A DNA stretch of 50,346 nt from Verrucomicrobiales bacterium (GTDB lineage Bacteria > Verrucomicrobiota > Verrucomicrobiia > Verrucomicrobiales > DEV007), in assembly GCA_028047635.1 (NCBI GenBank), contig JAOFXR010000018.1, positions 1-50,346 of the forward strand. Direction: 5' to 3'. The notes beneath the pieces were generated by a model. That model saw only the letters and a list, made by a program, of their open reading frames with translations, had not been told where the DNA came from and searched no databases. The number at the start of each line of letters is the position of its first letter. The stretch's first letter is position 1. Of this stretch, positions 12,519 through 27,627 are shown one piece after another. A program made the position numbers and the translations under genes.

Positions 12519-12653
12519 GGGGCGACTCTAATTCGAATTGAGGCGGGCGCAATCTTCGTGGCTGAGGGATGGGTAGCTTCATCGAGGTTGTGAAACGATT
12601 CACTTGCCATGAGCGGGCGTCCCGTGTATGAAATTAGCACTCTCTTTCCGAAT

Positions 12654-12738
12654 GCCGACATGGCGGAATTGGTAGACGCACCGGACTTAAAATCCGTTGA
12701 GTATTGCACTCGTGCGGGTTCGATTCCCGCTGTCGGTA
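12654..12738 (+). tRNA. tRNA-Leu (UAA anticodon)
   Basis: An 85-base class II tRNA. The acceptor stem is GCCGACA/TGTCGGT with a G-U first pair and discriminator A. The D arm is GCGGAATTGGTAGACGC, the anticodon loop is CTTAAAA with anticodon TAA, the variable arm is long (GAGTATTGCACTC) and the T arm is GCGGGTTCGATTCCCGC. The 3' CCA is not encoded (ATCTTT follows). The G-U first acceptor pair also occurs in the E. coli UAA isoacceptor. This intact copy sits at the left end of the genomic island and its 3' part is repeated at 22290-22348. The anticodon stem has a C-U mismatch at its outer pair (12681), where the right copy has A. Confidence 0.96.
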
Positions 12739-12740
12739 TC
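12682..12740 (+). repeat. attL: 59-bp direct repeat inside tRNA-Leu
   Basis: These 59 bases, from the anticodon arm to two bases past the tRNA end, are repeated exactly at 22290-22348. A tyrosine integrase gene starts 122 bp inside. This is the standard result of integration into the 3' half of a tRNA gene, with this copy keeping the tRNA intact. Confidence 0.95.
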
Positions 12741-12802
12741 TTTGGAAATCAACGGGTTGTGAGGGTTTTGATGTTAGCATTTGTTATGATTCTGCGGGAG
12801 TG

Positions 12803-12862: not shown

Positions 12863-14134
12863 ATGCGTGAAAATGAGGAGAGCATAAAGACACACATTGC
12901 GATTCCCCGCAAAAAGCAGAAAGAGCAGGGGCTTGGAAGCCGGAAAGGGAATGAAGTCAGCGTCACTAAGTGGAAGCACCGATTTTACAAATGGCGGGTT
13001 CGTTGGATAGAGGAAGGGCGGAAGCAGGAGAAGGGATTTAAGCGCAAGGATGACGCGGAGACGTGGGCGGAGGATAAAGAGAAAGCGCTTCTCAATTTTG
13101 GTGTGGGTGGAGCGCTCACGGCTGAAGAGCGGTCGGCGGTATTGGATTGCCGAGAGAGGCTTTTGGCCGTGAATCTAACTTTGAGAGATGCGGTAACCCT
13201 CGCTCTGGAACTTAAGGAGAAGGAAAGCCGTTCGATTATTGTCGGCGATTTGGTTCCTATTGTGATCGGGGAAAGGGAGAAGGCCGGAAGAAGTGAGCGG
13301 TATTTACAGGATTTACGTTCCCGGTTAGGTCGGTTTAAAACTGAGTTTCAGGGGCGATCTGTGGCGACGCTTACAAGGGATGAAATTACGGATTGGCTTC
13401 GAGGGTTAAAGCAAAGCCCAACCTCTCAGAATAATTATCTGCGGGTTGTTCGAGTAATGTTGAATGACGCTGTGAAACGAAAGTATCTCGATGAGAGTCC
13501 AGCCAAGCACATTATCGAAGCGAAAGCACCTCAGACAGAAGTGGGCACTCTTACTCCTGGCGAAATCTCAGTATTTCTCAGCAAAGCGCCGGAGGAGTTG
13601 GTTCCCACTATCGCGCTTGGCGCTTTTGCCGGGATACGGCGAGATGAGATTCGCGGCCTGAATTGGTCTGACGTAAATCTTACCCATAGGACTATTCGAG
13701 TCCGTCCTAAAAACGCAAAGTCGGCGCGCAATCGAATCGTTCCAATCGAAGACAATCTCGCCGACTGGCTTCAACCCTACGCGAATTGTGAAGGGCGGAT
13801 ATGGTGCGAAGGCGGAAACAGGAAGTTTACGGAAACCGTTCGAAAAATGGGATTCGGTGACCCGGGAACTGAGACAGTTGAAGAGAAGAAAGAGGGAATC
13901 CGATTCAAGGGGCCGTATCCCTCAAACGGGCTGCGACACTCATACGCGACTTACTGGTTAGCGAAGTTCAAAGACTCAGGGGCTTTATCCTTGAATCTAG
14001 GGCATACGAATAGCCGGATTGTTTTCGATCACTACCGCGCTCCTGTCGCTGAGAAAGACGCGACTTCGTATTGGGTGATCCGGCCAAAAGGGGCGGAAAA
14101 TGTGGTGGAAATGAACGGAAAGCAGGTCGCATAA
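12863..14134 (+). CDS. int: Tyrosine recombinase (island integrase)
   Basis: A 423-residue phage-type integrase. The N-terminal ~130 residues contain an arm-binding-like basic region (KHRFYKWRVRWIEEGRKQEKGF). A core-binding SAM-like domain follows (~135-225, with SQNNYLRVVRVMLNDAVKRKYL). The catalytic domain shows AGIRRDEIRGLNW (first Arg), NGLRHSYATYW (Arg of the H-x-x-R box; the usual first His is replaced by N/G) and LGHTNSRIVFDHYR (box II His and nucleophile Tyr). It lies 122 bp from the tRNA copy and presumably recombines the 59-bp sites. Its TAA overlaps the next gene's ATG (TAATG), so they are coupled. Confidence 0.95.
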   Translation: MRENEESIKTHIAIPRKKQKEQGLGSRKGNEVSVTKWKHRFYKWRVRWIEEGRKQEKGFKRKDDAETWAEDKEKALLNFGVGGALTAEERSAVLDCRERLLAVNLTLRDAVTLALELKEKESRSIIVGDLVPIVIGEREKAGRSERYLQDLRSRLGRFKTEFQGRSVATLTRDEITDWLRGLKQSPTSQNNYLRVVRVMLNDAVKRKYLDESPAKHIIEAKAPQTEVGTLTPGEISVFLSKAPEELVPTIALGAFAGIRRDEIRGLNWSDVNLTHRTIRVRPKNAKSARNRIVPIEDNLADWLQPYANCEGRIWCEGGNRKFTETVRKMGFGDPGTETVEEKKEGIRFKGPYPSNGLRHSYATYWLAKFKDSGALSLNLGHTNSRIVFDHYRAPVAEKDATSYWVIRPKGAENVVEMNGKQVA

Positions 14135-14898: not shown

Positions 14899-15114
14899 GT
14901 GAAAACGACATACCTATTATCCAAAACTGAAATCGCCAAGGCACTAAGCCTTTCAACTCGTTCAATCGACAAACTTGTAGCCTCTGGGAAAATCCCAAGC
15001 GTTACCGTTGGCACGCGTCGTTTATTCGACCCCGAAGAAATTACAGCCGTCCTCAAGGCAGGAGTCGCTTCGCCGGACAACGGCGGACTAGATCGCCCTC
15101 CTGTCCAATCCTAA
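14899..15114 (+). CDS. Excisionase/MerR-like helix-turn-helix protein
   Basis: A 71-residue protein starting at a GTG. It is a compact winged-HTH of the HTH_17/excisionase family: LLSKTEIAKALSLSTRSIDKLVASGKIPSVTVGTRRLFD has the helix-turn-helix, the SGKIP wing and the GTRRLF strand. In integrative elements such proteins direct excision (Xis) or act as AlpA-type regulators. The position next to the integrase module supports either. The stop falls 12 bp before the next gene. Confidence 0.85.
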   Translation: MKTTYLLSKTEIAKALSLSTRSIDKLVASGKIPSVTVGTRRLFDPEEITAVLKAGVASPDNGGLDRPPVQS

Positions 15115-15125
15115 CCAATCGAACG

Positions 15126-15362
15126 ATGGTTGGTTTGAAATACGAGCGTGATAATCGGTGTGGAGTTTGTGGGCGCCTTACCCCTCCCCATTTGGAAGCT
15201 GGGAAGCTGGAAAAGTGGACACCGATCTGCACGTCTTGCCAGAACAGAGCCGACCTCAATTCACTAAATGAATTCTATCATGAGAAACGTAATTACAATT
15301 CCAGAAGCCAAGGAGCGAATAACTATTCCGCATCTCTGGGCGATCCTGACATTAAGTGGTGA
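15126..15362 (+). CDS. Small zinc-ribbon-like protein
   Basis: A 78-residue protein with two CxxC pairs, CGVC (about residues 12-15) and CTSC (about 36-39), spaced like a zinc ribbon. It contains a basic helix-like stretch (NEFYHEKRNYNSRSQG). The last 95 bases overlap the next gene in another frame, an unusually long overlap, so either the end of this gene or the start of the next may be wrong. The zinc ribbon could supply the DNA-binding element that the next gene's CHC2-like domain has lost; this is inference. Confidence 0.6.
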   Translation: MVGLKYERDNRCGVCGRLTPPHLEAGKLEKWTPICTSCQNRADLNSLNEFYHEKRNYNSRSQGANNYSASLGDPDIKW

Positions 15363-15567
15363 TCCCCCGATCAAGGACGGGGTTTATCAGTCTCCTTTTC
15401 GAGACGATTCCAGTCCCTCATTTTCCATCTTCGCCGGCGGTCGGCGATTCAAGGATCATGGAACCGGTGAGGGAGGCGACGCTATCACCTTCCTTGCTTT
15501 GGCTCGCGGAATTGATAACCGGGACGCCGTAAAGGAATTTGTGACCATTGCTTCCAGAGGGCTATGA
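15268..15567 (+). CDS. CHC2-primase-like small protein lacking zinc ligands
   Basis: A 99-residue protein (or 95 from the ATG at 15280). It has the shape of a DnaG-type CHC2 zinc-finger domain: PFRDDSSPSFSIFAGGRRFKDHGTGEGGDAITFLALARG. The usual Cys-Pro-Phe-His has become SPFR and the second Cys pair is missing, so the zinc site is not present. In phage and satellite replication modules this domain precedes a TOPRIM/helicase protein, and here the downstream gene starts within the stop (ATGA overlap at 15564-15567). It probably assists template recognition in the island's primase, but without zinc. Confidence 0.78.
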   Translation: MNSIMRNVITIPEAKERITIPHLWAILTLSGDPPIKDGVYQSPFRDDSSPSFSIFAGGRRFKDHGTGEGGDAITFLALARGIDNRDAVKEFVTIASRGL

Positions 15568-17774
15568 ACAATCAACTTAATTGGAGTAATGTCGCGATCC
15601 CCTTGGACGATGAAAGAATCTCTCACCTCGCGAAAGAAAGAGGCTATAGGCCTGAATTTATTCGCTGGTTTTCTGATCAAGGATTGATTGGGTGGAGCAC
15701 ATTCGGGGGCGGGCGATGGTGCTTTCCTGTTCATGATCAAGGTGAGCTTGTAGCCGTTCACCAGATCCCGCCGACAAAGGAAAAACACCCGTCTTATCAC
15801 CCTAAGGGAAAAGGCGTTCATCCTCTCATTGTGGGAGAGGTCGAAGCAGCTTCGCTAATCGCCGTTTTTGAGAGTCAGTGGGATATGATGGCGGCTATGG
15901 ATGCCGCTGAATATCATCTTAAGCCACGGGGCGTGTATCTCTCTACGCGGGGAGCCGGCAACCGCATGCCTCCTTCATTTGTAAGCATTTTGGAAAGTCC
16001 TATCTATGCCTTTATGCAAAACGATCCTGTGAAGAACGGGAAGTGTGCCGCTGAAGGATGGCTAAAGGGAATCGAGGCTCAGGATTCCGTTCCTGTGGTT
16101 CGAGTGGATATCCCCGAGGACTTCGCAGATCCTCAAGAGTGGCTGTTGAAAAAAGGAATGGAGGAATTCCGACTCGGACTTCGAGAAGCCATGAAGGAGG
16201 CGAAATCAAAAGTTCACTCTTCGAAGGGGAGCGGACCTGATGAACCTGATAAACTGACAAACCCTGATTTTGAAGGGGGTAAATCAGGTAAATCAGGTAA
16301 ATCAGGTAAATCAGACAGGAGGGAGGAATCTACTGAAGAAGAGCGCTCGCCGTTTCCAGCGGCATACTTACCCCGTATTGCTCAGCAATTAGTCAGCGGG
16401 TTCGTTAAAATGACGGATGGAAGGATGCCCTTGGCTCTTCCGAGTATTTGCTGCTTAGGCACGCTCTCAGCGGCAATTGGACCTTTCGTTAGAATCCGCT
16501 CAACCTCGATGGGTGATACAACCGGAGCGAATCTCTTTCTTCTCGCCGGCGCGGAAAGCTCAAGCGGGAAATCGATCCCTTTCAAGAGAATCACAAAGCC
16601 TTTCTTTCAGTATGAGAGTGAAGCTCGAGAGGCATTCGCAAAAGAGACTTACCCCAGACTCAAATCTGAAGCGGATCTTTTAGAGGCAGAGAAAAAAGGA
16701 ATTCTGAACAATGCGACAAGAGGAAAGGGAAAGCCGGAAGATCGCGAATCACTGGTTGAGATAGAGGCGCGATTGAATGAGATAAAACTCAAGCTCGACC
16801 CTCCACGTCTTTTCTGTGGAGATTCTACGAGTCAGGCCATGATTCGGCTGATGGCGCGGCAACATGGAACAAGCCTCTCTTCAATGAGCGATGACGCCAG
16901 AACCATCATGGAAATAATTGAAGGGAAACACAACAAAGGCAGTAACGCCGACGATGGTTTTTTCATTCAGGCGTGGACTGGAAATCCTTATGCATTCGAC
17001 AGGGTGACCGATAGGGAAAACCTTGTAATTGATGCCCCTTGGCTCAGCGCAACCTGGTTTGTTCAACCGGATAAGCTCACGTCATTATCAGAGAATGTTG
17101 AGACGTTCAGTTCAGGTTTTTTCCAACGGTTACTTGTTTGCAACTCTGGAGCAACTCCGCTGAAATTTTCAGCACGGAAAGACTGCTTTCCTGTGGAAGT
17201 TGAGAGCGCGTGGGAAGGATTAGTGAAAACACTTCTCGAGACATACCGGCGAAAGGAGGATTGCGAGGTCGAAATTGTGGAGCCATCCCAAGATGCAGAA
17301 AAGCTCCTGAGAGAATACCAGAACAGTTGCGTAGATTTGCAGACCTCCACCTATTCCGATATTCCGACGATAGCAGGTAAATGGGGAGAGAATGCCTGGC
17401 GAATCGCTCTCAACCTCCACATGGCAGATCACGGTGTAGACGCAATCAAAACCCGTTTGAGCTGTGAAACAGCGGAGAGGGCAATCGAGATCATGAACTG
17501 GTTTTCAAAGGAGGCTTTAAGATTGGTAGCGCCGGCACGTGAAGAAAAAGAGAATGCGAGGTCCGAACGGCTGAGAGAAATTCTTTCCCGACCAAAATAC
17601 GACCGATTGAAAGGTGCTTCTCAAGGCATTCTAACAAATAATCACGGATTCAGTCGTGGTGAACTCGAAACGCTTTGTGAACGATACGAGAACGTATTTC
17701 AAAAGATTGATAAGGATACGACTGAGAAAGGTGGGAAACCCACGTTTCACGTTCGATTGAAAACCAAAGTGTAA
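15564..17774 (+). CDS. TOPRIM-like/DUF3987 replication protein (primase-helicase type)
   Basis: A 736-residue protein. The N-terminal ~210 residues are TOPRIM-like (VFESQWDMMAAMDA around 101-114, AFMQNDPVKNGKCAAEGW around 149-166). A low-complexity linker follows (four GKS triplets, ~238-250, from a 9-bp tandem repeat), then a DUF3987 region from ~268. Walker A is AESSSGKS (about 330-337), and SMSDDARTI (around 439) is a likely Walker B. Such fused proteins make primers and/or unwind DNA during replication of phages, satellites and plasmids. It overlaps the upstream CHC2-like gene by four bases. The last ~100 residues (ERLREILSRPKYDRLKG onward) look like a winged-helix DNA-binding tail. Confidence 0.82.
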   Translation: MNNQLNWSNVAIPLDDERISHLAKERGYRPEFIRWFSDQGLIGWSTFGGGRWCFPVHDQGELVAVHQIPPTKEKHPSYHPKGKGVHPLIVGEVEAASLIAVFESQWDMMAAMDAAEYHLKPRGVYLSTRGAGNRMPPSFVSILESPIYAFMQNDPVKNGKCAAEGWLKGIEAQDSVPVVRVDIPEDFADPQEWLLKKGMEEFRLGLREAMKEAKSKVHSSKGSGPDEPDKLTNPDFEGGKSGKSGKSGKSDRREESTEEERSPFPAAYLPRIAQQLVSGFVKMTDGRMPLALPSICCLGTLSAAIGPFVRIRSTSMGDTTGANLFLLAGAESSSGKSIPFKRITKPFFQYESEAREAFAKETYPRLKSEADLLEAEKKGILNNATRGKGKPEDRESLVEIEARLNEIKLKLDPPRLFCGDSTSQAMIRLMARQHGTSLSSMSDDARTIMEIIEGKHNKGSNADDGFFIQAWTGNPYAFDRVTDRENLVIDAPWLSATWFVQPDKLTSLSENVETFSSGFFQRLLVCNSGATPLKFSARKDCFPVEVESAWEGLVKTLLETYRRKEDCEVEIVEPSQDAEKLLREYQNSCVDLQTSTYSDIPTIAGKWGENAWRIALNLHMADHGVDAIKTRLSCETAERAIEIMNWFSKEALRLVAPAREEKENARSERLREILSRPKYDRLKGASQGILTNNHGFSRGELETLCERYENVFQKIDKDTTEKGGKPTFHVRLKTKV
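16278..16313 (+). repeat. Four tandem 9-bp repeats (GGTAAATCA)
   Basis: GGTAAATCA occurs four times in a row inside the DUF3987 gene, in frame, encoding repeated GKS. The repeat sits in the linker between the TOPRIM-like and ATPase parts, so unit gain or loss would change linker length without a frameshift. Confidence 0.95.
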
Positions 17775-18050
17775 TTACTCTTCACAAATGGCGTAAATAT
17801 CATCGTGGTTCAACTCTTTCTGAATTTCTCTACAAGCGTCCAGATTACATCGAAATTGGTTGCTGCCGCCCTGGAATTTCATTATAACAAAGCCTGTTAG
17901 AGAATAGCCGATGATAGTTTTTGTGAGTTCCCTTATTGCTAATTGGTTAATACTGTCCTTCTCCCCTTGGCGAGATATGCGAATGTGGCTAGCTCCTGTA
18001 GGTGCTGCTGCATTTACAGCCTTTTGGTATTTGACCTGATTGTTTGCTAG
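17775..18050 (-). pseudogene. Open frame without standard start; tail copy 1 of the TPR-gene family
   Basis: A 91-codon open frame with a stop just upstream at 18051 and no ATG/GTG/TTG near its 5' end (the first Met is at 17882). Its last 20 residues (REIQKELNHDDIYAICEE at the end) match half of the tail ending the 18117 and 20440 genes. The upstream part (QLAIRELTKTIIGYSLTGFVIMKFQGG) looks protein-like. It is most simply a 5'-deleted gene, with its stop immediately adjoining the DUF3987 gene's stop. A true coding gene with a rare start is possible but less likely. Confidence 0.45.
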
Positions 18051-18116
18051 TTATCTCCAAAAATTCCAGATCTCCTTTTCAGGATTCTGTCTGATTAGCG
18101 AAAGCAATTAGGATAA

Positions 18117-18338
18117 TTATTCTGCACAAAGCGCATTCAAATCATCGTCGCTCAATTCCTTTTTAATCCCTTCCCAAGCGCCGACAGCATGCTTGAAGCA
18201 TTCTCGGGCCTTCTGATACTCTCCGACCTCATAAAAGGCTCTAGCCCGTGCATGATGGAAGCGGGCGGCATCTCTGAGGCTCCACTGCGGAAGAGTGAAG
18301 CACGTTGGCGACGGCTTGCAAAATGATCGCGCTAACAT
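18117..18338 (-). pseudogene. Truncated copy of the TPR-like gene (tail copy 2)
   Basis: A 73-codon frame whose last ~55 residues (RFHHARARAFYEVGEYQKAR, then ECFKHAVGAWEG, then KELSDDDLNALCAE) match the C-terminus of the 123-residue protein at 20440-20811. At DNA level, 18193-18224 and 20513-20544 are identical over 32 bases. Relative to that protein, ~20 residues of the middle are missing and the first ~80 have gone. It looks like a degenerate paralogue left by duplication and deletion. Confidence 0.7.
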
Positions 18339-18356
18339 TGCACTTCATTGTTGAGG

Positions 18357-19049
18357 TTAGTCTTCTTCAGTCTCCCTCGCTCGCGACAATGCCGAAGCGA
18401 AGAGTCCAGTGGGAACCGCGACGAGCCCTAGCCCTATTATAAGAATGAAAAAAGTGAGAACCCGTCCCCCGATCGTTATCGGATACACGTCTCCGTATCC
18501 TACGGTTGTTAATGTCACCACCGACCACCAAAGAGAGTGAAACACCGAACCGAAGGCTTCCGGCTGGGCAGCACGCTCGAAATAATAAATGCCTACCGAG
18601 GACAAGTAGAGGACGATCAATGCAACAGTTCCAAAAAGCACCAGTTCTTCCCTTGCGATTACAAACGCGCGGTGAAATCGCTGCATCGCCGCGCTGTATC
18701 GAGCGAGCTTGAGTAACCGGAAAAGCCGGAGCAGCCTAAACGCGCGGATCGAACGCAAATCGATGCCGGTCGAGAGGTAGAACGGCAGAATGGCAAGCAG
18801 ATCGACCACACCGAAGAACGAAAAAGCGTATGAAAGCCGAGGCCGACAAAGAAGCAGCCGCAGAATATACTCAATCGTAAAGATTGAGACTGTAATCACT
18901 TCAAAGAGCCGGAGGTGTCGCCGCCATCTTTCGGAGAGAGTTGGAAGCGTCTCGATCGCAAACGCAATAAGGGACAGGACGATCAGTGCCTGGATCAAAT
19001 AGTCCCAGCGTCCGAAAGATGCCCTGCCTTTGTCGTCACGCTGGATCAT
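18357..19049 (-). CDS. Voltage-gated-type potassium channel
   Basis: A 230-residue ion channel from the ATG at 19049. A longer reading upstream overlaps the small gene and is less likely. It has six membrane helices. S4 is SIRAFRLLRLFRLLKLARY, with regularly spaced arginines (voltage-sensor-like). The pore loop WWSVVTLTTVGYGDVYPIT has the K+ selectivity filter TVGYGD, and the last helix runs into a short acidic tail (ARETEED). The length fits a tetrameric Kv-like bacterial channel without a cytoplasmic RCK domain. Its start overlaps the stop of the upstream 72-residue gene as ATGA, so the two are translated together. Presence on a mobile island is unusual; a toxin-like or defence effector role is speculation. 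Confidence 0.92.
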   Translation of the reverse strand: MIQRDDKGRASFGRWDYLIQALIVLSLIAFAIETLPTLSERWRRHLRLFEVITVSIFTIEYILRLLLCRPRLSYAFSFFGVVDLLAILPFYLSTGIDLRSIRAFRLLRLFRLLKLARYSAAMQRFHRAFVIAREELVLFGTVALIVLYLSSVGIYYFERAAQPEAFGSVFHSLWWSVVTLTTVGYGDVYPITIGGRVLTFFILIIGLGLVAVPTGLFASALSRARETEED

Positions 19050-19264
19050 CGAATGAGGTATCCAATTATGGGGACAGCAATAAACGAAGCTCCGACAGTC
19101 AAAAATGCTCCGATAATAACGAGGCATCCTGCTGCGCCTCCTACCTTACGTTGGCGGCCGGATCGAGATAAGGGTATTCCAATCTTTCGCGATAGCTTAC
19201 TCTTGGCGGAAGAGAGGCCGGAGGCCCGCTTCCAAGAAAATGAGAAACCGTATTTTTTTGCCAT
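19046..19264 (-). CDS. Small basic protein with C-terminal hairpin helix
   Basis: A 72-residue protein beginning MAKKYGFSFSWKRASGLSSAKSKLSRKIGIPLSRSGRQRKVG, quoted here only to show the strongly basic N-terminal region, followed by a hydrophobic stretch (CLVIIGAFLTVGASFIAVPIIGYLI) that is one long or two short membrane helices. The SRSGRQRKVG motif recurs in small proteins of unknown function in other bacteria (from memory). The stop overlaps the channel's start codon (ATGA), strong evidence that it is real and co-produced with the channel. It may be a subunit or regulator of the channel, which is inference. Confidence 0.72.
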   Translation of the reverse strand: MAKKYGFSFSWKRASGLSSAKSKLSRKIGIPLSRSGRQRKVGGAAGCLVIIGAFLTVGASFIAVPIIGYLIR

Positions 19265-19395
19265 GTGCTTTTTTGTCGAACGGTATTGATCAGCGACTTG
19301 CGAAGCGAGTCCGCTGCATCGCTAGGGCAGGTTATATTTGGCGCAATATCTTGCGTCAAGATCAGAATGGAGATCGAGGACGGCGGTCTTGATGA

Positions 19396-19455
19396 TCACT
19401 CTTCACAAAGGGCAATCAAATCAGAATCGCTCAAGTCATTTTCAAAACCTAACTG
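19396..19455 (-). pseudogene. Tail copy 3: remnant C-terminal tail
   Basis: Read on the minus strand in the frame that ends at the TGA at 19396, the sequence encodes QLGFENDLSDSDLIALCEE then stop. This matches the shared tail (ELSDDDLNALCAE) of the TPR-like gene. It begins within the last few codons of the BRCT gene in a different frame, so only the tail survives and the body is gone. Confidence 0.6.
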
Positions 19456-20372
19456 TAGTCCTCCAGCGCATCCCAGAAATCTGATTCGTGAATGATCTGA
19501 ATTTTGTGCCCTTCTTTGCGGAGTTGCACTGCTTCCTCCACTTTTCTTCCATAACAAGAAAACGCCCAACATGGATTTCCTCCTGCACCCACAACAAGAA
19601 ATTCAGTCTTTTGCGATAACCCTTTTGCAAACACCCCTCCAAGTTTCGTAATTTGATCCGCGATATCGTTTCTTGTCGCCTTCATCGATGTTCCCGTAAA
19701 AGTAAACCTTCGTGCTTTGAATTCGATCTCTGGACAGTTTGAGCAGACCGCTGGGAGCTTCATCAACTTTGGCAGATTCCCTTTCACCCTTCGAGTTTCA
19801 TCCTTTAGCTGCTTAGCGAACGAATACTCGATAAAATCTTCAAAAAAGCCAACCAACAAACTCTGCTCTTCATCATCAATTTTGCCATCCTTGAGGACGC
19901 TCATCAGAAGTGAATCCAATTCGTCGTAGGGATACGACCCCTTTAATTGTTCGTTCGAGTTAATCCAATCCTGTAGGCCTTTAGCCTCTTCGAGCGAAAT
20001 GTGACCATCTGCCATAATACCATGAAGTATCCCCTGCAGTTTTTGAATCTGATTTGTAATCGCATCATAATATTCACTGTCAGGTGAGAGGTTCTTACAG
20101 AGCCATAGCAAGTCCTCTAATTCATCTTCATCAATTACTTGATCCTCCATAATCTCATCCAGTTTTGGAATAAGTTCAGAGAACGGAGCCCGGCTTGCTA
20201 CCTCGCGGTATTGATCGCACCAGTTTAGCACTTCGGCGATTTCGTCAGCATTGAGTTCATCATCTATGGATACACCCCGTAGGAGTCCAGTAAGTGTATG
20301 AACGGCTTTATCAACAATCTGCCGCTTAGTGAAATGTCTGTATTCTTTGTGATCTGGATGTTCGAGGCTCAT
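19449..20372 (-). CDS. BRCT-domain protein with TerB/EF-hand-like N-terminal repeats
   Basis: A 307-residue protein. The first ~195 residues hold four related acidic modules (DDELNADEIAEVLNWC, DEDELEDLLWLC, DGHISLEEAKGLQDWI, DGKIDDEEQSLLVGFF). These resemble TerB-like helices or degenerate EF-hands, with a D-x-x-I-x-x-E pattern. The last ~90 are a BRCT domain: RRFTFTGTSMKATRNDIADQI, LGGVFAKGLSQKTEFLVVG and IIHESDFWDAL match the first strand, the central phosphate-site loop and the last helix of DNA ligase-type BRCT domains. A BRCT domain typically binds DNA ends or phosphopeptides. The protein is cytoplasmic; its job on the island is unknown. Tail copy 3 overlaps its end in another frame. Confidence 0.85.
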   Translation of the reverse strand: MSLEHPDHKEYRHFTKRQIVDKAVHTLTGLLRGVSIDDELNADEIAEVLNWCDQYREVASRAPFSELIPKLDEIMEDQVIDEDELEDLLWLCKNLSPDSEYYDAITNQIQKLQGILHGIMADGHISLEEAKGLQDWINSNEQLKGSYPYDELDSLLMSVLKDGKIDDEEQSLLVGFFEDFIEYSFAKQLKDETRRVKGNLPKLMKLPAVCSNCPEIEFKARRFTFTGTSMKATRNDIADQITKLGGVFAKGLSQKTEFLVVGAGGNPCWAFSCYGRKVEEAVQLRKEGHKIQIIHESDFWDALEDYS

Positions 20373-20439
20373 GATTAAGAAAAGTGTTCGCTGTAGATTG
20401 AATAGAGCAGTGCTTAAATGAGAGCAACAAAGATCGTAT

Positions 20440-20811
20440 TCAAAGGAAAAGCGCGCTCAAGTCATCATCGATCAATTCCTTCCGAATACCATCCCAAGCG
20501 CCGACAGCTCGTTTGAAGCATTCTCGGGCCTTCTGATACTCTCCAATCTCATAAAAGGCCCTAGCGCGTGAGTGATGGAACCGCGCAACAGTGTGAGATT
20601 CACTTTCCCCGGCATATAAAAGCAGCTCCGCTATATGCTCTCCTAATTCCCATTGTGAGAAAGCTGTGAGGATACGAAGCCGGAGATCTAAAACCGGTGC
20701 TTTCGTCTTTTCTTCAGGTGGCAGTGATTCGATCAAGTCCCAGGCATCCGAAAACATTCCAAGTTCACAGTAGCCGGTAGCCTTTTTGATTATCTCTTGT
20801 TCGGAGCCCAT
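20440..20811 (-). CDS. TPR-like protein (intact copy, tail copy 4)
   Basis: A 123-residue protein from the ATG at 20811; a longer reading runs into the divergent HNH gene's start region. It is entirely helical, with TPR-like helix pairs: ATGYCELGMFSDAWDLIESLP and HHSRARAFYEIGEYQKARECFKRAVGAWDG. The C-terminus is KELIDDDLSALFL. It appears to be the parent of the truncated tail copies at 17775, 18117 and 19396. Only 25 bases separate its start from the divergent HNH gene, so promoters must overlap. TPR proteins bind partner proteins; no partner is recognised. Confidence 0.75.
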   Translation of the reverse strand: MGSEQEIIKKATGYCELGMFSDAWDLIESLPPEEKTKAPVLDLRLRILTAFSQWELGEHIAELLLYAGESESHTVARFHHSRARAFYEIGEYQKARECFKRAVGAWDGIRKELIDDDLSALFL

Positions 20812-20836: not shown

Positions 20837-21457
20837 ATGAAGTGGATCACAACAGTTTTAGCAATCGCAGGTCTAGCCTTTTCAGGCTGGAAAGCGTTCG
20901 AGGCGCTAGAGGCGAAGTCGGCGCAAAAGGAGGCAGTCAATTTGATCGCTCCGATCGTGGCGTATCGCGACATCTACGAATCAGGCCGAAGTCGAGAGGC
21001 AAACGACTTGCTCTTGAGGGCCGTTGCCTTGCTGATCAAAGCGGAGAACGAAGGCGGAGACCCTCGCGAGATCCTGAGAGTTGCCGAACGGATTAATAAC
21101 ACACCGGTGAACTACTCCGATTTGCTTACTGACTCCATGCTACGAAATATCAAGATTGCGCGGGAACTAAAACTGGATACGCCGGCGAACCTCGAGCTTA
21201 TGAGCGAAGGAAAAAGTCCCATTGTCGGCTCTGGCCCTTATACCGGTGAAAAGATTGAAGTAGATCACATCGTGCCGCGCTCACTTGCTCCGGATCTGGA
21301 CAATCTACTAATCAATTTGGAAATGATGCCGATGACGCTTAACAGACGGAAAAGCAACAAGGTGACCGAAAGGGCTGCGGCAATGGCGAAGAGGTTCTAT
21401 GAGGCCGGAGTGATGACGCCTGACTCGTTTGAACGAGTGATGAAAGCAAAGTCTTGA
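20837..21457 (+). CDS. HNH endonuclease-like protein with N-terminal anchor
   Basis: A 206-residue protein. The first ~25 residues (MKWITTVLAIAGLAFSGWKAF) form one membrane or signal-like helix. Residues ~30-120 are helical, and the last third is an HNH motif: VDHIVPRSLAPDLDNLLINLEMMPMTLNRRKSNKV has the DH pair, the Asn in DNLLINLE and the last Asn of SNKV. In this class the first His activates water and the others bind one metal. The hydrophobic N-terminus suggests location in or across the inner membrane, unusual for HNH nucleases. The stop overlaps a TTG in the next frame, hinting at coupling with the lipoprotein gene. Confidence 0.83.
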   Translation: MKWITTVLAIAGLAFSGWKAFEALEAKSAQKEAVNLIAPIVAYRDIYESGRSREANDLLLRAVALLIKAENEGGDPREILRVAERINNTPVNYSDLLTDSMLRNIKIARELKLDTPANLELMSEGKSPIVGSGPYTGEKIEVDHIVPRSLAPDLDNLLINLEMMPMTLNRRKSNKVTERAAAMAKRFYEAGVMTPDSFERVMKAKS

Positions 21458-21486
21458 TATTATCCCCGGTCCTGCTAGCGGTAGGG

Positions 21487-22134
21487 ATGCGGATGTTACT
21501 ATTGTGTTCAATTTTTCTATTCGGGTGCAAGACCCAGGAAAGTGATTCGTATAAGGCTTGGGTTGCGTCTACTCATGAGGTGGGAGTCGGGGATTCTACT
21601 CCGATGGAAGAATCTGCTATTAGCGGAGCAGAAAGGAGAAGTCAGAGACTTGCTGAGAAAGCGCACAAAAAAGGGTTTAGCAGCGTAGATAGCTTTAAGC
21701 GTGCGCGCTCAAAGGAGTTGGCGGAGGGGTTTGCTAGTATAGGGGCAGGATTAAGCTCCTATGGTGGCGCGGGAACCCCGTCATATTATACTTCGCCATC
21801 GAATAATTATTCCACCGCTTCAAGTCCGTCGCTGGCAGCAAGTCCTTCTAGGAAAAACCTAACCACAAATATTATTGGAGACACTGCATTTCATTCGAAT
21901 GGAACAAGCTCTACAAAGATTGGGGATACGACATATCACTCAGGTGGAACAAGCTCTACAAAGATTGGGGATACGACATACCACTCAGGTGGAACAAGCT
22001 CTACAAAGATTGGGGATACGACATTCCATTCAGGTGGAACAAGCTCTACAAAGATTGGGGATACGACATTCCATTCAGGTGGTGGGACAAGCACAAGGTT
22101 TGGAAATACGATTTACACGAGCGGGGTGCCTTAA
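21487..22134 (+). CDS. Repeat-containing lipoprotein
   Basis: A 215-residue protein from the ATG at 21487 (another ATG lies at 21493); an upstream TTG at 21454, overlapping the HNH stop, would add 11 residues. The N-terminus MRMLLLCSIFLFGCKTQ is a signal peptide with a lipobox (LFGC), so the Cys should be lipidated. A Ser-rich middle part follows (SSYGGAGTPSYYTSPSNN), then at least four 15-residue repeats of the form GTSSTKIGDTTYHSG with degenerate units before and after. Such repeats look like extended surface-exposed beta or low-complexity modules. Function is unknown; it is the last gene before the right attachment repeat. Confidence 0.78.
   Translation: MRMLLLCSIFLFGCKTQESDSYKAWVASTHEVGVGDSTPMEESAISGAERRSQRLAEKAHKKGFSSVDSFKRARSKELAEGFASIGAGLSSYGGAGTPSYYTSPSNNYSTASSPSLAASPSRKNLTTNIIGDTAFHSNGTSSTKIGDTTYHSGGTSSTKIGDTTYHSGGTSSTKIGDTTFHSGGTSSTKIGDTTFHSGGGTSTRFGNTIYTSGVP
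21901..22080 (+). repeat. Four tandem 45-bp repeats
   Basis: Four near-identical 45-base units (21901-21945, 21946-21990, 21991-22035, 22036-22080) inside the lipoprotein gene, in frame and encoding GTSSTKIGDTT(Y/F)HSG. Differences are few (tatcac, taccac, ttccat), so the array is a recent expansion. Confidence 0.97.
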
Positions 22135-22289: not shown

Positions 22290-22348
22290 CGGACTTAAAA
22301 TCCGTTGAGTATTGCACTCGTGCGGGTTCGATTCCCGCTGTCGGTATC
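22290..22348 (+). repeat. attR: 59-bp copy of the tRNA-Leu 3' part
   Basis: Identical to 12682-12740. It has the anticodon loop, variable arm and T arm but no 5' half, so it is not a functional tRNA. It marks the right end of the island. Just outside, 22354-22377 holds a short tandem AGTCAAAG repeat. Confidence 0.95.
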
Positions 22349-22481
22349 CCTAACAGTCAAAGAGTCAAAGAGTTAAGGAGGATTAAGCGCCAATGATCGG
22401 CGTGAGTTCTTAAGTCTGGTATACAGATATATACAGACAACTCGGGATTTCGTTCTAATTCGCTGCTATTGTAGCGTCAAA

Positions 22482-22546
22482 CTGATAGGAATTCGCTTTT
22501 TCAAGGGCTGCTCATCGGCGCGTCGGTCCTACCGATTGAGGGGGGC
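22482..22546 (+). repeat. R1: imperfect direct repeat, left copy
   Basis: Begins CTGATAGGAATTCGCTTTT and matches 24578-24643 at roughly three quarters of positions, same orientation. It lies in the 255-base gene-free stretch between attR and the sulfatase; I see nothing else there. With the other copy it brackets the 22604-24055 sulfatase and a gene remnant. Confidence 0.6.
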
Positions 22547-22603
22547 AGAGAAAACAGTAAAGACTTTCCTGAGGAGGGTTCAGCCGGCTCAACGATAGCG
22601 ACA

Positions 22604-24055
22604 TCAATAGTCTTCACCGTTCAAGCTGCGAGAGACGCTGCTCAACCAGTTTGATAAATCGACTTTCATCTTTTCGACCAGTTCCGGATGTTGGCTGGAA
22701 ACATCGACATCTTCGTGAGGGTCACTATTCAGATTGAATAATTTCCACTTCACTTTCTTCGAATCGGCAGAAGAAGACCGGTGAAGTTTCCAGTCCCCTG
22801 AAATCCATGCGGCCTGTCCGGGGTAAACACCCAGTGGAAATTTCTGGCGAGGCACTTTCTCGACACGTTTCGTAACTCGCGCGACCTTTTTGTCGCTCCA
22901 GTTTTCCAGAGTCGGCAAGACTTTTGAAACAGGCCCCATTGGATTGGTAAAATGCCCCGGAACATTGGCATTCCAAAATCCCAGATCTTTCGGCCTGGCC
23001 TCCACTTCACCTTTGAGTAAAGGAACTAAACTGATTCCATCCAGATCCGGCCCTGAATAGTCGACGCCGACAATATCAAGAAGAGTAGGAAAAATATCGG
23101 TGGTGCAACACCTCATAGAAGAAGATCGCGGGGCGGCAATTTTTTCAGGCCACTCAAGAATCGCGGGAACTCGAAGCCCGCCCTCATAGAGCTTGTGTTT
23201 ACTACCACGGTAGCCGCCAGTGCTGCCGACATTTTTAAGAGCTCCGTTGTCGCTAGTGAACCAAAGGATCGTATTATCCCGAATTCCAAACTCTTCCAGC
23301 CCATCACGCAACTGTCCGAATGCACGGTCAATGCCAGTTACTTCACCCAGGAAATCCTGATTTTTTTTCGGCTGGTCCGCATAAAGGGCCTTGTCTTCCG
23401 GTGCTGCCCGATGAGGATAGTGCGGCGAACCAAACCAAATTACTGCAAAGATCGGAGATTCCCCTTTCGTGGCTTCCGCGATCCATTCAAGAGCAATATC
23501 AACAGTTGCGGCGCTGCTCTCCCCGCGAATTTTCTCCTCGCGCCCCTCGTTACTCATCACGGGATTGTTGTCGTAAAAATTCGGAGAACTCACCCAGCGG
23601 TCGAATCCGTTCTTCCCGGGATTCACTGGACTGTCGGCGCGCACAGAGCCAAGATGCCATTTACCAAAATGACCGGTGAGGTAACCATTTCCCCGCAACA
23701 CCTCGGCAATGGTCGTTTCCTGAGGTCGAATGGAATGCCCCCAACTGAAGACACCCATCCGGTTGGGATGTCGACCCGTGAGAACACTGGCCCGGGTCGG
23801 AGAACAGGACGGAGCGGAAGCGTAAAAGGAATCGAAGCGGAAACCGGATGCTGCCGCCGCATCGAGGTTTGGGGTTTTCAGAACCGGATGGCCGTTGTAA
23901 GCAACATCACCCCAACCCTGGTCGTCGGACATGACGAGGACGATGTGTGGGCGGCTCTTCACTTCCGCGGTCAAGCTATCGCTTTGCTCCTGTCCGAAAG
24001 CACTGGCGAAAAGACCAGAGAGCAGAATGATGAGCGTTTGAATTCGTGTATTCAA
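22604..24055 (-). CDS. Secreted sulfatase (arylsulfatase-type, formylglycine-dependent)
   Basis: A 483-residue type I sulfatase with a signal peptide (MNTRIQTLIILLSGLFASAFG). HIVLVMSDDQGWGD carries the Asp pair of the metal site. CSPTRASVLTGR is the Cys-type motif whose Cys must be converted to formylglycine. YLTGHFGKWHLG holds the Lys-x-His active-site residues, and LWFTSDNGALKNVGSTGGYRGSKHKLYEGGLRVP holds the second metal-binding part and downstream Lys. The C-terminal part includes KWKLFNLNSDPHEDVDVSS, usual for secreted sulfatases. It cleaves sulfate esters, most probably on algal glycans, outside the cytoplasm; substrate class cannot be assigned here. Codon and base use look like its chromosomal neighbours. 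Confidence 0.95.
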   Translation of the reverse strand: MNTRIQTLIILLSGLFASAFGQEQSDSLTAEVKSRPHIVLVMSDDQGWGDVAYNGHPVLKTPNLDAAAASGFRFDSFYASAPSCSPTRASVLTGRHPNRMGVFSWGHSIRPQETTIAEVLRGNGYLTGHFGKWHLGSVRADSPVNPGKNGFDRWVSSPNFYDNNPVMSNEGREEKIRGESSAATVDIALEWIAEATKGESPIFAVIWFGSPHYPHRAAPEDKALYADQPKKNQDFLGEVTGIDRAFGQLRDGLEEFGIRDNTILWFTSDNGALKNVGSTGGYRGSKHKLYEGGLRVPAILEWPEKIAAPRSSSMRCCTTDIFPTLLDIVGVDYSGPDLDGISLVPLLKGEVEARPKDLGFWNANVPGHFTNPMGPVSKVLPTLENWSDKKVARVTKRVEKVPRQKFPLGVYPGQAAWISGDWKLHRSSSADSKKVKWKLFNLNSDPHEDVDVSSQHPELVEKMKVDLSNWLSSVSRSLNGEDY

Positions 24056-24165
24056 TGTAGTTCAATCAAGAGTGAGACTTCTACGGTAGAGATTCCTTTA
24101 TTCAAGAGATACAACGATTGCTCATCAGAGAAAGTTAGATCCACTCTTGCAGATATTTCCTGATC

Positions 24166-24577
24166 TCATGGTTTCTGTTCCAGTTTATTCGCCGGAATCA
24201 CGACTGCATTCTTGAATCCGGGCTGCAATTTTCCAAGATCCAAAGCAGCGGCGATGCGCGTCACATCGTCTTCGAGATCCAATTCAACCCGGAAGAATCC
24301 CTCCGCCCAGGGCCTGGAGTAGTGGAGAGGCTGCAAGGCAAGAAGGTCGGATCGGCTATCATATCCTGTTGATTCGTTCTCGCGGATCATGAGGAAGCCG
24401 TGGAAAAACGTTCCGAGGCGAGGATTCTTAAGGACACGTCCAGTGGCAATGGCATCCGGGGTGTCGGCAGGTTTCGCGTCGGGAGTTCTTTTTCGGAAAA
24501 CCCGAAGCTCACCTGCAGTCCCCACTTCATCTGCCGGCAGGCCGGCAACCCTCAGCCAGATTTCTGTGCCCCAGTAA
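24166..24577 (-). pseudogene. C-terminal remnant of an unrecognised gene
   Basis: An open frame of ~137 codons (SYWGTEIWLRVAGLPADEV at its upstream side, ending NAVVIPANKLEQKP). It has no good start codon other than an internal GTG at 24525, and runs into repeat R2 at 24578 before a stop. Protein-like composition up to the repeat border suggests the 5' part of a real gene was lost there. No family is recognised. A short genuine gene starting at the GTG (119 residues) is the alternative. Confidence 0.45.
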
Positions 24578-24643
24578 CTGATAGGAATTTGCTTTTACAA
24601 GGATTTTTATCGGGGCGTCGGTTCGGCCGGGTTTGAGGGGGTG
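24578..24643 (+). repeat. R2: imperfect direct repeat, right copy
   Basis: Begins CTGATAGGAATTTGCTTTT and matches R1 (22482-22546). It lies precisely between two truncated genes: the minus-strand remnant ends at its left edge and a plus-strand sulfatase remnant begins ~40 bases to its right. Confidence 0.6.
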
Positions 24644-24682
24644 CATCGCCAAAGAACCTAGATTTGTGATCACGTAATTCAT

Positions 24683-25126
24683 GTGTATCCGCGAGGAGGG
24701 CGGCTTGGGCGTGCGATTCGGACCAAGCGGTATCGTATCGTGGAGTGGAAGGTTCCCGGTAGCTCGGCGGACTCAGCTGAGTTCGAACTTTATGATTACG
24801 TGGAAGACCCTCTTGAGACGAAGAATTTGGCAGCTACACAAACAGAGACACTGGCGGACCTTCGAAAAATTCTTGCGACCCATCCGGAGGCAATGCCGCA
24901 GTATCGTATCATCACTCCCGAGCAACGCGCGAAAAAGGAAGCGGCGATTGCGAAACGGGTAGGGGCTTTCAAAAAGCGGGATCAGGATAAAGATGGTCGT
25001 CTCACGAGGGAAGAGTTTTTGATCGGGCAGCCGGACCCGGAGGAAGCGCCGAAGCGGTTTCCGATTTTTGATCGGAATGGCGACGGGACGCTTTCGGAGT
25101 CCGAGTATGTGAACGCTGGAAAGTAG
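24683..25126 (+). pseudogene. 5'-truncated sulfatase C-terminus with EF-hand pair
   Basis: A 147-codon frame that looks like the tail of an iduronate-2-sulfatase-type enzyme. YPRGGRLGRAIRTKRYRIVEW followed by FELYDYVEDPLETKNLA is the usual closing segment of such proteins. After it come two EF-hand loops (DQDKDGRLTREE and DRNGDGTLSESE), the usual calcium-binding addition in PVC sulfatases. The catalytic domain, including the Cys-x-Pro/Ser-x-Arg motif, is absent, so it cannot be an active sulfatase. The ATG at 24683 is where the family's sequence begins, so the break lies within a few bases upstream. Confidence 0.7.
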
Positions 25127-25266
25127 GGATTGAGTCGAGGGGTAGGTTTTTCTGTTAATCTTTTCCGGATTGTGACATTTGTTATTGATGCGTTTTAGCT
25201 CGTTGCCGGTGCGATTTTTTGAATCATCAAAAGGGCGGTGAGCAAAGCAATGCGAAACTGCCCCGT

Positions 25267-27627
25267 ATGACTAATCTTCGAATTCTTTTTTCGCTGCTTT
25301 TCACGATGAGTTTTCATTCAGCTGCCCCGGCCGCTGAGGAGCCACTTCTCAGTGAGGAGGGGCAAAAGAAAAAAGCGGTTCACGATTTTCTCTTCGACAC
25401 TTTTAGTGCGGACCGTAAGACGGTTTATCAGGGAACGAGCCGGACTCGTGGTTTGAAAGAACTTACTATTCTTGAGGCGAAACATGAAATTCGTGACGGC
25501 TCTGAAATTTTGCTCCCCGGGGGAACCGAGCGTATTGCCGTTTTGTTTCGTCACTTCGGATTTCATGGCGAAAACCTCGATCGGATTAAGGAGGTTCGGG
25601 TGTTTCCCTTCTCGCCTGAGAAAATGCCACCTCGCAGTGCTCAGGTGAACGACTTCTACCGGGTGCAGATGCCGACGATTCCGAAGTCGGCTGTCGATCC
25701 GGGACTGGTGAAATTTCGATTTCTGATGAAAGACAAGGAGGCTGTCTGCCGAATCGATGACGTCGTTTTCTATGCGCAAAATGCGATATCGCCGGAGTTC
25801 GATACGATCCCTTATCGGGATCTCGGCTCGGAGTTTCCGCGCGAGCGGGTTGAGATCAATGTTGATACTGCGAATGAGCTCTCGATTGGTGGAAGCGCAG
25901 ATCTGCAGCGCGAACGATGGTTTCGCGTTCATGAAACGCCGGGATCCACGCATGAGTCATTTCAGCGATGGATGGTCGAGCGTGGCTTTCTCCCCGCACG
26001 AGGTTTTCTGAAATTTACTCCGGCCCTGACAAAGCCCTGGAATGGTGAGCCACCACTTACGGAGCGCGAGGACAAGCCGGGTGCAGCTGACCTGACTTTT
26101 TTCGACAAGTATGATTCCGGAAGTCGCCTCCGCACTGCTATCCCTGAGTTGAAGGGGGAGTCGTTTTTGCAATGCTTCAACGATTGGCCGGAGTTCATGT
26201 CGGTTCCACTGAAAGGACGGGGGACACCACTGGAGGAGCGCTTTGATGAAGCCACCGCGCTTGCTGCCGCTTATGTCGCAGATCAGGTCAAGGACGCTGG
26301 TTACACCTCGACCTGGTGGGAGGTGAAGAATGAGAGTAGTGTAAAATCGGAATGGGACCACCACTTCGCGAAGGGCAAGGACGGTTGGGGGCTGCTCTCG
26401 GATTTCCACAACCGCATGGCCGATGCGATTCATGAGAGCACTCCGGAGGTGAAAGTGGGCGGGCCATCCTCGGCCTACATGCAGCTTCAGGTGCAGGATT
26501 TCGGGCTCTATCGGAGCCAGGCTCGCTTCATCGAAGAGACGCGGGGACATCTTGATTTCTTTTCGCATCACTTCTACGAAAATGCAGGGAACCTCGGCGC
26601 TCACGAACGCCGCGGACTCGGCTATTCCAATTACCTGCTCGGTCGCTACGAGGCATCTCTCGACATGTTGCGCGCCCACATGCACAAGGTGGATAATGTG
26701 CTTCCGATACTCATCACTGAAACCGGCTCACTACAAAATGGTCGGGAGCCGGCTGATAACTGGCTTCGGCTCTATGCGTGGAATGCCTACCTGACCAAAT
26801 CGATGCAGCGCCCCGATCAGATCGACCTGTTCATCCCGTTCATTTTCATGCACATGCCGTGGAATCCGAATAGTGGCGATGCCGCTTTTACTCCGAAGCC
26901 CGGGATCGACTGGAACCACAAATGCGACGATTTCGAGCCGACAACGATCGCCCACTTTTTTGATCTTTGGCAGGGATTTGATGGCAAGCGCCTCCCGGTT
27001 TCGTTTGCGCGGGACTGGCTCGATGTGGTTGCAGTCCACGAGGGAATTCAGATTTCACTGGCCGTGACGAATATGGGAGGAAAGCAAATTTTGGTCGACC
27101 TTTCCAAACTGGATAAGCAAGTGGGGGCTTCGAATACCACCCAAACGCGATTGAACTATCAGAAAGGTGAGGTCGTTTTTGAACCCGCTCATTCAGTCGA
27201 TCCTGCAGCGGTTCCAGTGGATGTGAACGAAACGACCGTGATCCGATTTTTGCTTCCGAAACCACTCGATCCTGACGGAATACTGCAGCAGGCTCGTTCC
27301 TATGCTGCGGAGACTGCCGTTGCAAGTGAGGGGCAGTCACTGCTGTTTCATATCGACACACACGGGAACAAGCAACTCAAGTCGGCGAGGCTCCTCGTGG
27401 GTATTCACCGTGTAGGCGGTCTCACTGATCCACTTGAGGTCAGCGTGAATGGAACACCGATAGCCATCGACACTGGCGATGCCGATGAGTTCAGCGAATT
27501 CTTTGCTCCTCTCGATGCTGATATTCCGGTATCGCTTCTTCGCGATAGCAATCAGGTCGTGGTGAAGGCTCAAAGCGGTTCTACTGTCACCTCGGTGCAA
27601 ATTGTCACGTCCGGGATTGTTGAGTAG
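25267..27627 (+). CDS. GH86-type glycoside hydrolase (beta-agarase/porphyranase-like)
   Basis: A 786-residue protein from the ATG at 25267 (MTNLRILFSLLFTMSFHSAAPAAEE is the signal peptide); an upstream start would only lengthen the leader. After an N-terminal beta region (~30-190) comes a TIM barrel. It has STWWEVKNESSVKSEWDHHF (acid/base Glu in the WEVKNE segment), HLDFFSHHFYENAGNL, and ILITETGSLQNG (candidate nucleophile Glu). Beyond ~560 are two beta-sandwich-like parts, one ending near VTSVQIVTSG. GH86 enzymes cut agarose or porphyran, both red-algal polymers. With the sulfatases around it, a polysaccharide-degradation locus is a sound inference; assignment to agarase rather than porphyranase is not. 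Confidence 0.78.
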   Translation: MTNLRILFSLLFTMSFHSAAPAAEEPLLSEEGQKKKAVHDFLFDTFSADRKTVYQGTSRTRGLKELTILEAKHEIRDGSEILLPGGTERIAVLFRHFGFHGENLDRIKEVRVFPFSPEKMPPRSAQVNDFYRVQMPTIPKSAVDPGLVKFRFLMKDKEAVCRIDDVVFYAQNAISPEFDTIPYRDLGSEFPRERVEINVDTANELSIGGSADLQRERWFRVHETPGSTHESFQRWMVERGFLPARGFLKFTPALTKPWNGEPPLTEREDKPGAADLTFFDKYDSGSRLRTAIPELKGESFLQCFNDWPEFMSVPLKGRGTPLEERFDEATALAAAYVADQVKDAGYTSTWWEVKNESSVKSEWDHHFAKGKDGWGLLSDFHNRMADAIHESTPEVKVGGPSSAYMQLQVQDFGLYRSQARFIEETRGHLDFFSHHFYENAGNLGAHERRGLGYSNYLLGRYEASLDMLRAHMHKVDNVLPILITETGSLQNGREPADNWLRLYAWNAYLTKSMQRPDQIDLFIPFIFMHMPWNPNSGDAAFTPKPGIDWNHKCDDFEPTTIAHFFDLWQGFDGKRLPVSFARDWLDVVAVHEGIQISLAVTNMGGKQILVDLSKLDKQVGASNTTQTRLNYQKGEVVFEPAHSVDPAAVPVDVNETTVIRFLLPKPLDPDGILQQARSYAAETAVASEGQSLLFHIDTHGNKQLKSARLLVGIHRVGGLTDPLEVSVNGTPIAIDTGDADEFSEFFAPLDADIPVSLLRDSNQVVVKAQSGSTVTSVQIVTSGIVE

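What the first reader, a model, noticed from the sequence alone, without database searches (positions are those of the whole stretch)
17775..20811. Four copies of one C-terminal tail mark repeated cassette turnover in the island
The tail (about KELxDDDLxALCxE then stop) ends the intact TPR-like gene (20440), a truncated copy (18117), an open frame without a start (17775) and a bare remnant overlapping the BRCT gene end (19396). Between the tails lie unrelated genes (channel plus small protein; BRCT protein). DNA of copies 18193-18224 and 20513-20544 is identical over 32 bases. The tail may act as a homology or junction point for exchange of island cargo.
Basis: partly seen in the sequence, partly recalled or inferred. 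Interest (0 to 1): 0.72.

Follow-up and report, generated by a model that had tools for sequence, protein, structure and literature searches.

The report
Decayed copies of an island TPR gene
The repeated protein "tail" is the ordinary end of one small helical-repeat gene, and its broken copies in a mobile DNA island of an environmental bacterium look like leftovers of past rearrangements of the island's cargo.

Summary
The four copies are real. In a scan of the whole 50-kb window, both strands, they are the four best DNA matches to the 3' end of copy 18117; 19396 scores above all 100 shuffles, 17775 equals the best one. The tail is not a special module: it is the C-terminal end of a TPR protein family. 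18 of 18 longer homologues displayed carry a DPDL-type motif there, and the island tails line up with it. Copies 18117 and 20440 differ mostly at third codon positions (14 of 21, P=0.002), so what is kept is protein, not a DNA site. The 32-base identity lies in the TPR core, not the tail.

Island-type TPR copies lie on nine contigs of this genus; six show a tRNA or tRNA fragment (no baseline computed), with differing neighbour genes. N-terminal fragments occur too (3 loci). In window and G127:C68 a channel+BRCT pair has TPR sequence on both sides.

Best reading: a tRNA island with PICMI-like core genes whose cargo zone was rebuilt repeatedly, leaving TPR remnants. Exchange by recombination between TPR copies is possible, unproven. 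An integron-like tail site is not supported.

The parts
12653..12740 (+). tRNA-Leu (TAA), integration site of the island
   Evidence: ARAGORN
12682..12757 (+). left att repeat (tRNA 3' part)
   Evidence: direct repeat with 22290-22365, 89%; 45 bases of the tRNA 3' end identical at both ends
12863..14134 (+). tyrosine recombinase (integrase)
   Evidence: PF00589 E 5.9e-11
14899..15114 (+). AlpA-like HTH_17 protein
   Evidence: PF12728 E 6.3e-7
15268..15567 (+). small protein like a primase N-terminus
   Evidence: phrog_5629 DNA primase E 2.6e-7
15564..17774 (+). DUF3987 protein (helicase/primase type)
   Evidence: PF13148 E 1.4e-49; 74-75% identical relative in G155
17775..17885 (-). TPR remnant 1 (tail ...IQKELNHDDIYAICEE*), abuts the DUF3987 stop codon
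   Evidence: DNA score 33 and HMM E 0.0009 in whole-window scans; extent (E 0.47 there)
18117..18311 (-). TPR remnant 2: 3' part of the TPR gene, upstream part out of frame, ending KELSDDDLNALCAE*
   Evidence: 118/139 nt identical to the 20440 copy; alignment to G068:C52 reaches about 18311
18357..19127 (-). ion channel (cargo); start by homology probably 19049
   Evidence: PF00520 E 2.9e-37; 56-59% to G127:C68
19046..19264 (-). small 72-aa open frame, overlaps the likely channel start
   Evidence: no Pfam or PADLOC match
19396..19445 (-). TPR remnant 3: bare tail (ENDLSDSDLIALCEE*) just after the BRCT stop
   Evidence: DNA score 47, above all 100 shuffles; HMM only E 0.11
19449..20372 (-). 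BRCT-domain protein (cargo)
   Evidence: PF00533 E 1.4e-4; phrog_3989 E 1.9e-83; distant relatives (25% identity) in phages K139 and Kappa
20440..20811 (-). most complete TPR copy, 123 aa, last codons altered
   Evidence: TPR_2 E 1.7e-5 but under the gathering score; family profile
20837..21457 (+). HNH-like protein
   Evidence: PF13395 E 0.002, under cut-off
21454..22134 (+). protein with tandem 15-residue repeats
   Evidence: no Pfam match
22290..22365 (+). right att repeat

Best explanation
The 17775-20811 stretch is the cargo zone of a tRNA-Leu integrative island with the core genes of a satellite-like element (integrase, AlpA-like HTH, DUF3987 protein). A small TPR gene that is recurrent cargo in such islands of this genus was present or arrived several times. 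Each rearrangement of the zone (gain or loss of blocks such as channel and BRCT, by homologous recombination between TPR copies or by illegitimate joining) broke older copies and left their 3' ends. Shown: the four copies, their family, the att repeats, differing neighbours in relatives, the third-position bias. Inferred: number and order of events, the recombination pathway, and the function of the cargo (perhaps phage defence for BRCT and channel).
For: Four related copies at DNA level. The tail lines up with the C-terminus of the family: 18 of 18 longer homologues displayed carry a motif there, 16 DPDL, 1 HPDL, 1 DADL; MAFFT of 4 island-type and 6 longer sequences puts KELxDDDLxAL on ALxDPDLxxL. 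18117 vs 20440: 14 of 21 differences at third positions, P=0.0018. att repeats. G075 has a mini-island of about 2.6 kb at the same tRNA-Leu site with an uninterrupted 129-aa TPR gene and its own tRNA duplication. In six copies that keep the C-terminal end (window 20440, G127:C68, G127:C124, G068:C52, G167:C57, G075:C90) the next gene on the 3' side is BRCT, LamG, a 208-aa ORF, trypsin-like, GrpB and a 220-aa ORF: six of six differ (the three window remnants are not in this count). Broken copies elsewhere: G068:C115, G089:C101 (two), G127:C68 (two), G068:C52 with an in-frame stop.
Against: All three remnants in this window are 3' ends and no 5' fragment was found, which random decay does not predict, though 3 of 3 is weak. 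The protein score of 19396 is near chance. For the short remnants 17775 and 19396 the third-position excess is slight (6, 5, 9 and 2, 3, 5 differences at codon positions 1, 2, 3). Divergence of the copies does not date separate events. Only draft contigs were available, and joins cannot be checked against reads.
Confidence: 0.78

Rival explanations
1. The TPR gene is a recombination anchor: incoming island DNA crosses over in a resident TPR copy by homologous recombination, so that cargo such as channel+BRCT is swapped between TPR sequences.
For: Channel+BRCT lies between TPR sequences of the same orientation in the two loci where I saw both genes (window; G127:C68). Copies 18117 and 20440 share 139 nt at 85% with a 32-base identical run.
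Against: In G127:C68 the two TPR parts cover nearly separate residues (19-72/77 and 75-121), which equally fits one insertion into a single gene. In G193 a BRCT gene lies near a DUF3987 3' fragment without TPR on a 5.5-kb contig. No before/after pair of islands was found. The channel was looked for only in fetched loci, not genome-wide.
Confidence: 0.25
2. The tail is a site-specific cassette end, like an integron attC site.
For: Different contexts end with the same short sequence; the island encodes a tyrosine recombinase.
Against: No GTTRRRY within the scanned 300 nt at any of the four tails and two hits of its reverse complement; fold energies within 1.3 sd of shuffles. Integron integrase model: 2 matches in the own genome, 31.8 and 25.6 bits, cut-off 265 (genome 63% complete). 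Differences mostly third-position.
Confidence: 0.02
3. The tail is a C-terminal peptide tag added to different proteins (BRCT-tail made by frameshift).
For: The 19396 tail follows the BRCT stop at once, in another frame.
Against: Of 9 BRCT homologue loci tried the script printed 5 ends (L064, L069, L070, L071, L025); all end at WDA(V/L/I)(E/Q)D plus few residues without the tail. The other 4 (L065-L068) did not match its anchor and were not read, though one search aligns them to residue 305-307 of the window protein.
Confidence: 0.02
4. 17775 and 19396 are chance matches.
For: 19396 protein score E 0.11; 17775 DNA score equals the best of 100 shuffles.
Against: Both are in exact stop-codon register, on the same strand within 3 kb, and rank 3rd and 4th in the whole window by DNA and by profile.
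Confidence: 0.06

Closest known systems
PICMI phage satellites (PMC10803314, passages seen)
   Same: Integrase PF00589, AlpA-type PF12728 and DUF3987 PF13148 close together in a small island; the paper notes small ORFs and pseudogenes in non-coding regions
   Different: tRNA-Leu instead of fis; a Verrucomicrobiales lineage instead of Vibrionaceae; carries a cargo zone; no helper phage known
[quoted passage not shown]
   Same: High gene turnover at one place in a small element; a distant BRCT relative (kp3) lies between cI and int of phage Kappa, next to glo, the position that the paper names as a hotspot in K139-like phages
   Different: There two conserved genes bound the hotspot; here the recurrent gene itself is duplicated and broken
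tRNA-borne genomic islands (Islander, PMC4383910; listing and start of abstract seen only)
   Same: tyrosine integrase, tRNA 3' fragment marking the far end
   Different: nothing structural seen
Longer TPR homologues of the genus (open frames of 157-281 aa)
   Same: GY(I/L)xLxM..AW..L..LPP start and DPDL-type end
   Different: island copies are about 123-129 aa, lack a middle part in the alignment and are often broken

Membership tests
TPR family of the genus | N-terminal GYxxLxM..DAW..LPPE block | tested here: met
   20440 copy; absent in the three remnants
TPR family of the genus | C-terminal LxDxDLxxL end | tested here: met
   17775 and 19396 keep diverged forms
TPR family of the genus | Pfam TPR gathering score | tested here: not met
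   TPR_2 25.0 bits against 27; kinship rests on homologues
PICMI-like satellite | integrase (PF00589) + AlpA (PF12728) + DUF3987 (PF13148) together | tested here: met
   model as in PMC10803314 passages
PICMI-like satellite | integration next to fis (optional marker in the paper's results, mandatory in its search model) | tested here: not met
   tRNA-Leu
PICMI-like satellite | induction and packaging by a helper phage | not testable with these tools
   needs phage infection
integron cassette array | integron integrase | tested here: not met
   0 matches over cut-off in the own genome, which is 63% complete
integron cassette array | attC sites at cassette ends | tested here: not met
   no GTTRRRY, two reverse-complement hits, folding like shuffles
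tRNA genomic island | tRNA 3' direct repeats at both ends | tested here: met

The most novel reading that the evidence does not exclude
One small TPR gene serves as a shared landing and exchange gene for cargo in otherwise different tRNA islands of this genus (DUF3987 type, DnaB/AAA_25 type), so that its remnants are a fossil record of swaps and a bait for finding new defence-like cargo such as channel+BRCT.
Probability: 0.2. Interest if true: 0.55.

Novelty: new member of a known kind. Interest (0 to 1): 0.3.

Why it matters
The remnants suggest that a satellite-like island in a little-studied bacterial lineage has a cargo zone that has been rebuilt more than once, and they give a sequence bait (the TPR family) for such zones in related genomes. 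If TPR copies prove to be the crossover points, it would be a simple natural case of a cargo gene acting as recombination anchor. Otherwise it is ordinary gene decay in an island.

Tried and rejected
Integron or attC reading: rejected. Tail as a protein tag on BRCT: rejected. TPR as a normal chromosomal neighbour of tRNA-Leu: rejected. Of 20 stretches fetched, 16 were scanned for tRNAs, plus L059; with the window, nine stretches hold a tRNA-Leu(TAA) beside the same chromosomal genes (window, L059, L157, L158, L163, L169, L170, L173, L176), and only the window and G075 (L059) have TPR there. Nine scanned stretches (L160, L162, L164-L167, L171, L172, L174) had no tRNA, and four short ones (L159, L161, L168, L175) were not scanned. 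Viral contigs: no relative of the N or C part. Phages and plasmids: no relative of the TPR protein at E <= 0.01. Genome contigs with the tail profile: 7 loci, of which 2 hold the tail (same lengths as the two G127 contigs) and 5 match only outside the tail, in Bacteroidales/Bacteroidia, Planctomycetota and Eremiobacterota. Structure from a single sequence: helices throughout, mean pLDDT 73, under 50 from residue 117, so it says little about the tail. tRNA link outside the genus: 1 of 6 stretches (L184-L189); also 0 of 1 for the longer G035 homologue (L190). DNA search of the genus with the 3' end: beyond the window copies and G127:C124 the matches are 16-35-base hits at E >= 0.0127 that I take as chance. 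Paper searches gave nothing direct on TPR genes in such islands or on remnants as exchange points (listings seen only).
Full report
The window is one contig (C90) of a draft genome of 3.18 Mb in 193 contigs, 63% complete. The finding lies in an island of about 9.6 kb between two copies of the tRNA-Leu(TAA) 3' end, 12682-12757 and 22290-22365. The plus strand holds a tyrosine recombinase, an HTH_17 protein, a primase-like small protein and a DUF3987 protein; then come minus-strand cargo (ion channel, small open frame, BRCT protein, TPR protein) and plus-strand HNH-like and repeat proteins. Integrase, AlpA (PF12728) and DUF3987 are profiles of the PICMI satellite model in PMC10803314 (passages seen); the fis site of that model is not met.

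Check of the observation. With the last 66 nt of copy 18117 as probe, the four best ungapped matches in the whole window and both strands are 18117, 20437, 19396 and 17775, in stop-codon register (scores 132, 60, 47, 33; next best 23). The best scores of 100 3-mer shuffles have a median of 24 and a maximum of 33. A profile built without 17775 and 19396 ranks these third (E 0.0009) and fourth (E 0.11) among 1992 open frames; the best scores of 20 shuffles range from 5.5 to 10.8, so 19396 (9.2) is not safe on this test alone. Pairwise local alignments against 500 shuffles gave 0 for 17775/18117, 18117/19396 and 18117/20440, but 1, 4 and 1 for 17775/19396, 17775/20440 and 19396/20440. Copy 20440 ends ALFL and lacks the final C-x-E. 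Copy 19396 abuts, not overlaps, the BRCT stop.

What the tail is. The TPR protein at 20440 has homologues in 25 of 33 genomes of the genus at E <= 0.01, island copies included. The 18 longer homologues displayed all carry near their end a motif like the tail: 16 DPDL, one HPDL, one DADL. An alignment of four island-type and six longer sequences puts KELxDDDLxAL on ALxDPDLxxL. In another genus of the family the protein ends RLALDDTDLEPLWERLSSSL. The tail is therefore the C-terminal end of the TPR protein. Over 138 nt, 18117 and 20440 differ at 21 positions: 3 first, 4 second, 14 third codon positions (P 0.0018), so both seem to have been read as protein during much of their divergence. In the 45-nt tail part 6 of 10 differences are third-position, against 8 of 11 in the core: the tail is not better kept at DNA level. 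For the short remnants the pattern is weaker (against 18117: 17775 has 6, 5, 9 and 19396 has 2, 3, 5 by codon position).

Relatives. Of 189 genomes of the order, 4 have the C-terminal part at E <= 0.01, the own genome included, all of this genus. By my sorting, nine contigs of the genus hold island-type copies or fragments: G000:C90, G068:C52, G068:C115, G167:C57, G089:C101, G127:C68, G127:C124, G075:C90 and G155:C543. Six of the nine have a tRNA or a tRNA 3' fragment in the stretch fetched (Leu-TAA twice, Leu-TAG, Arg-TCT, Phe, and a Phe fragment beside an integrase). The other three are a 3.1-kb contig, an 11.4-kb contig with HTH_17 and a DnaB/AAA_25 gene, and a 32.7-kb contig (first 20 kb scanned) with the copy within 0.4 kb of its end. 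I computed no baseline for this link; outside the genus 1 of 6 stretches has a tRNA. In G075 the same tRNA-Leu site carries a mini-island of about 2.6 kb with an uninterrupted 129-aa TPR gene and a second tRNA 3' copy. The next gene on the 3' side differs in six of six copies that keep the C-terminal end, the three window remnants not counted. Broken copies are frequent: N-terminal parts in G068:C115, G089:C101 and G127:C68; C-terminal or internal parts in G127:C68 and G089:C101; an in-frame stop in G068:C52.

Channel and BRCT. G127:C68 carries homologues of both (56-59% and 68%), in the same order, with an N-terminal TPR part on one side and a C-terminal TPR part on the other. In the window the pair is likewise enclosed by TPR sequence (20440 and 18117). 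These are the only two loci among those fetched that hold both genes; BRCT was searched in 189 genomes of the order (9 with a match at E <= 1e-20), the channel only in fetched loci. This fits crossover in TPR copies, and in G127 it fits equally well an insertion into one TPR gene, since the two parts hardly overlap. The five BRCT homologues whose ends were printed, of nine tried, end without a tail. A distant BRCT relative lies between cI and int of phage Kappa beside glo, annotated as involved in phage exclusion, a place that PMC9122126 describes as an antiviral hotspot in K139-like phages (passages seen); that paper's main text does not mention BRCT. A defence role for the window cargo is thus an inference. 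PADLOC gave for BRCT a candidate model (PDC-S48, E 2.3e-7) and a weak ankyrin match (E 0.0099), and nothing for the channel.

Mechanism. Most likely the cargo zone between the DUF3987 gene and the right att site has been rebuilt several times, each time breaking or displacing a TPR copy. Three remnants at three places need several breakages; their tail identities to 18117 (20440 81%, 19396 78%, 17775 68%, over 54, 45 and 63 nt) are too short to date them. Which recombination pathway was used is not shown. Integron-type exchange is not supported. That all three remnants here are 3' ends, with no 5' fragment in the window, is unexplained but is only three cases.

Verdict. Observation confirmed with corrections; interpretation partly supported. 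The phenomenon is a new member of a known kind: cargo turnover in a tRNA-borne, satellite-like island, marked by gene remnants.

Noticed in passing
window 22480-22506 and 24576-24602 (minus strand); relatives L032 1918, L007 1333, L034 3236, L058 11752: A dispersed repeat of the genus (around GGTTGAAAAAGCGAATTC) lies close downstream of TPR genes in G075 and G068 and between two TPR fragments in G089; window copies are degenerate. Six matches with up to 2 mismatches in the own genome, 0 for the reversed control.
   Followed up: partly
L058 9926-10078 and 14003-14131 against L010 11245-11421 and 4969-5109: In G089 the C part of TPR lies 5' of the N part, in G127 the order is the normal one with 6 kb between: opposite arrangements of similar fragments (107/124 and 47/59 nt identical), unexplained.
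   Followed up: partly
window 22366-26000: No DNA match to the 12.5 kb fetched downstream of the same tRNA-Leu in the closest relative at this site, G112, which shows only one tRNA copy there: the right flank of the island may be a further insertion or rearrangement.
   Followed up: no
window 21874-22098: Tandem 45-base repeats in a small protein of unknown family (IGDTTYHSGGTSSTK units) near the right att site.
   Followed up: no
L025 3662-5535 (G193:C171): A DUF3987 3' fragment lies near a BRCT gene without the rest of the DUF3987 gene: another rearranged region.
   Followed up: no
L188 10240-10725: In another genus a TPR N-terminal part runs into sequence that looks like the start of an IS1182-type transposase (recalled motif, no family search made).
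   Followed up: no
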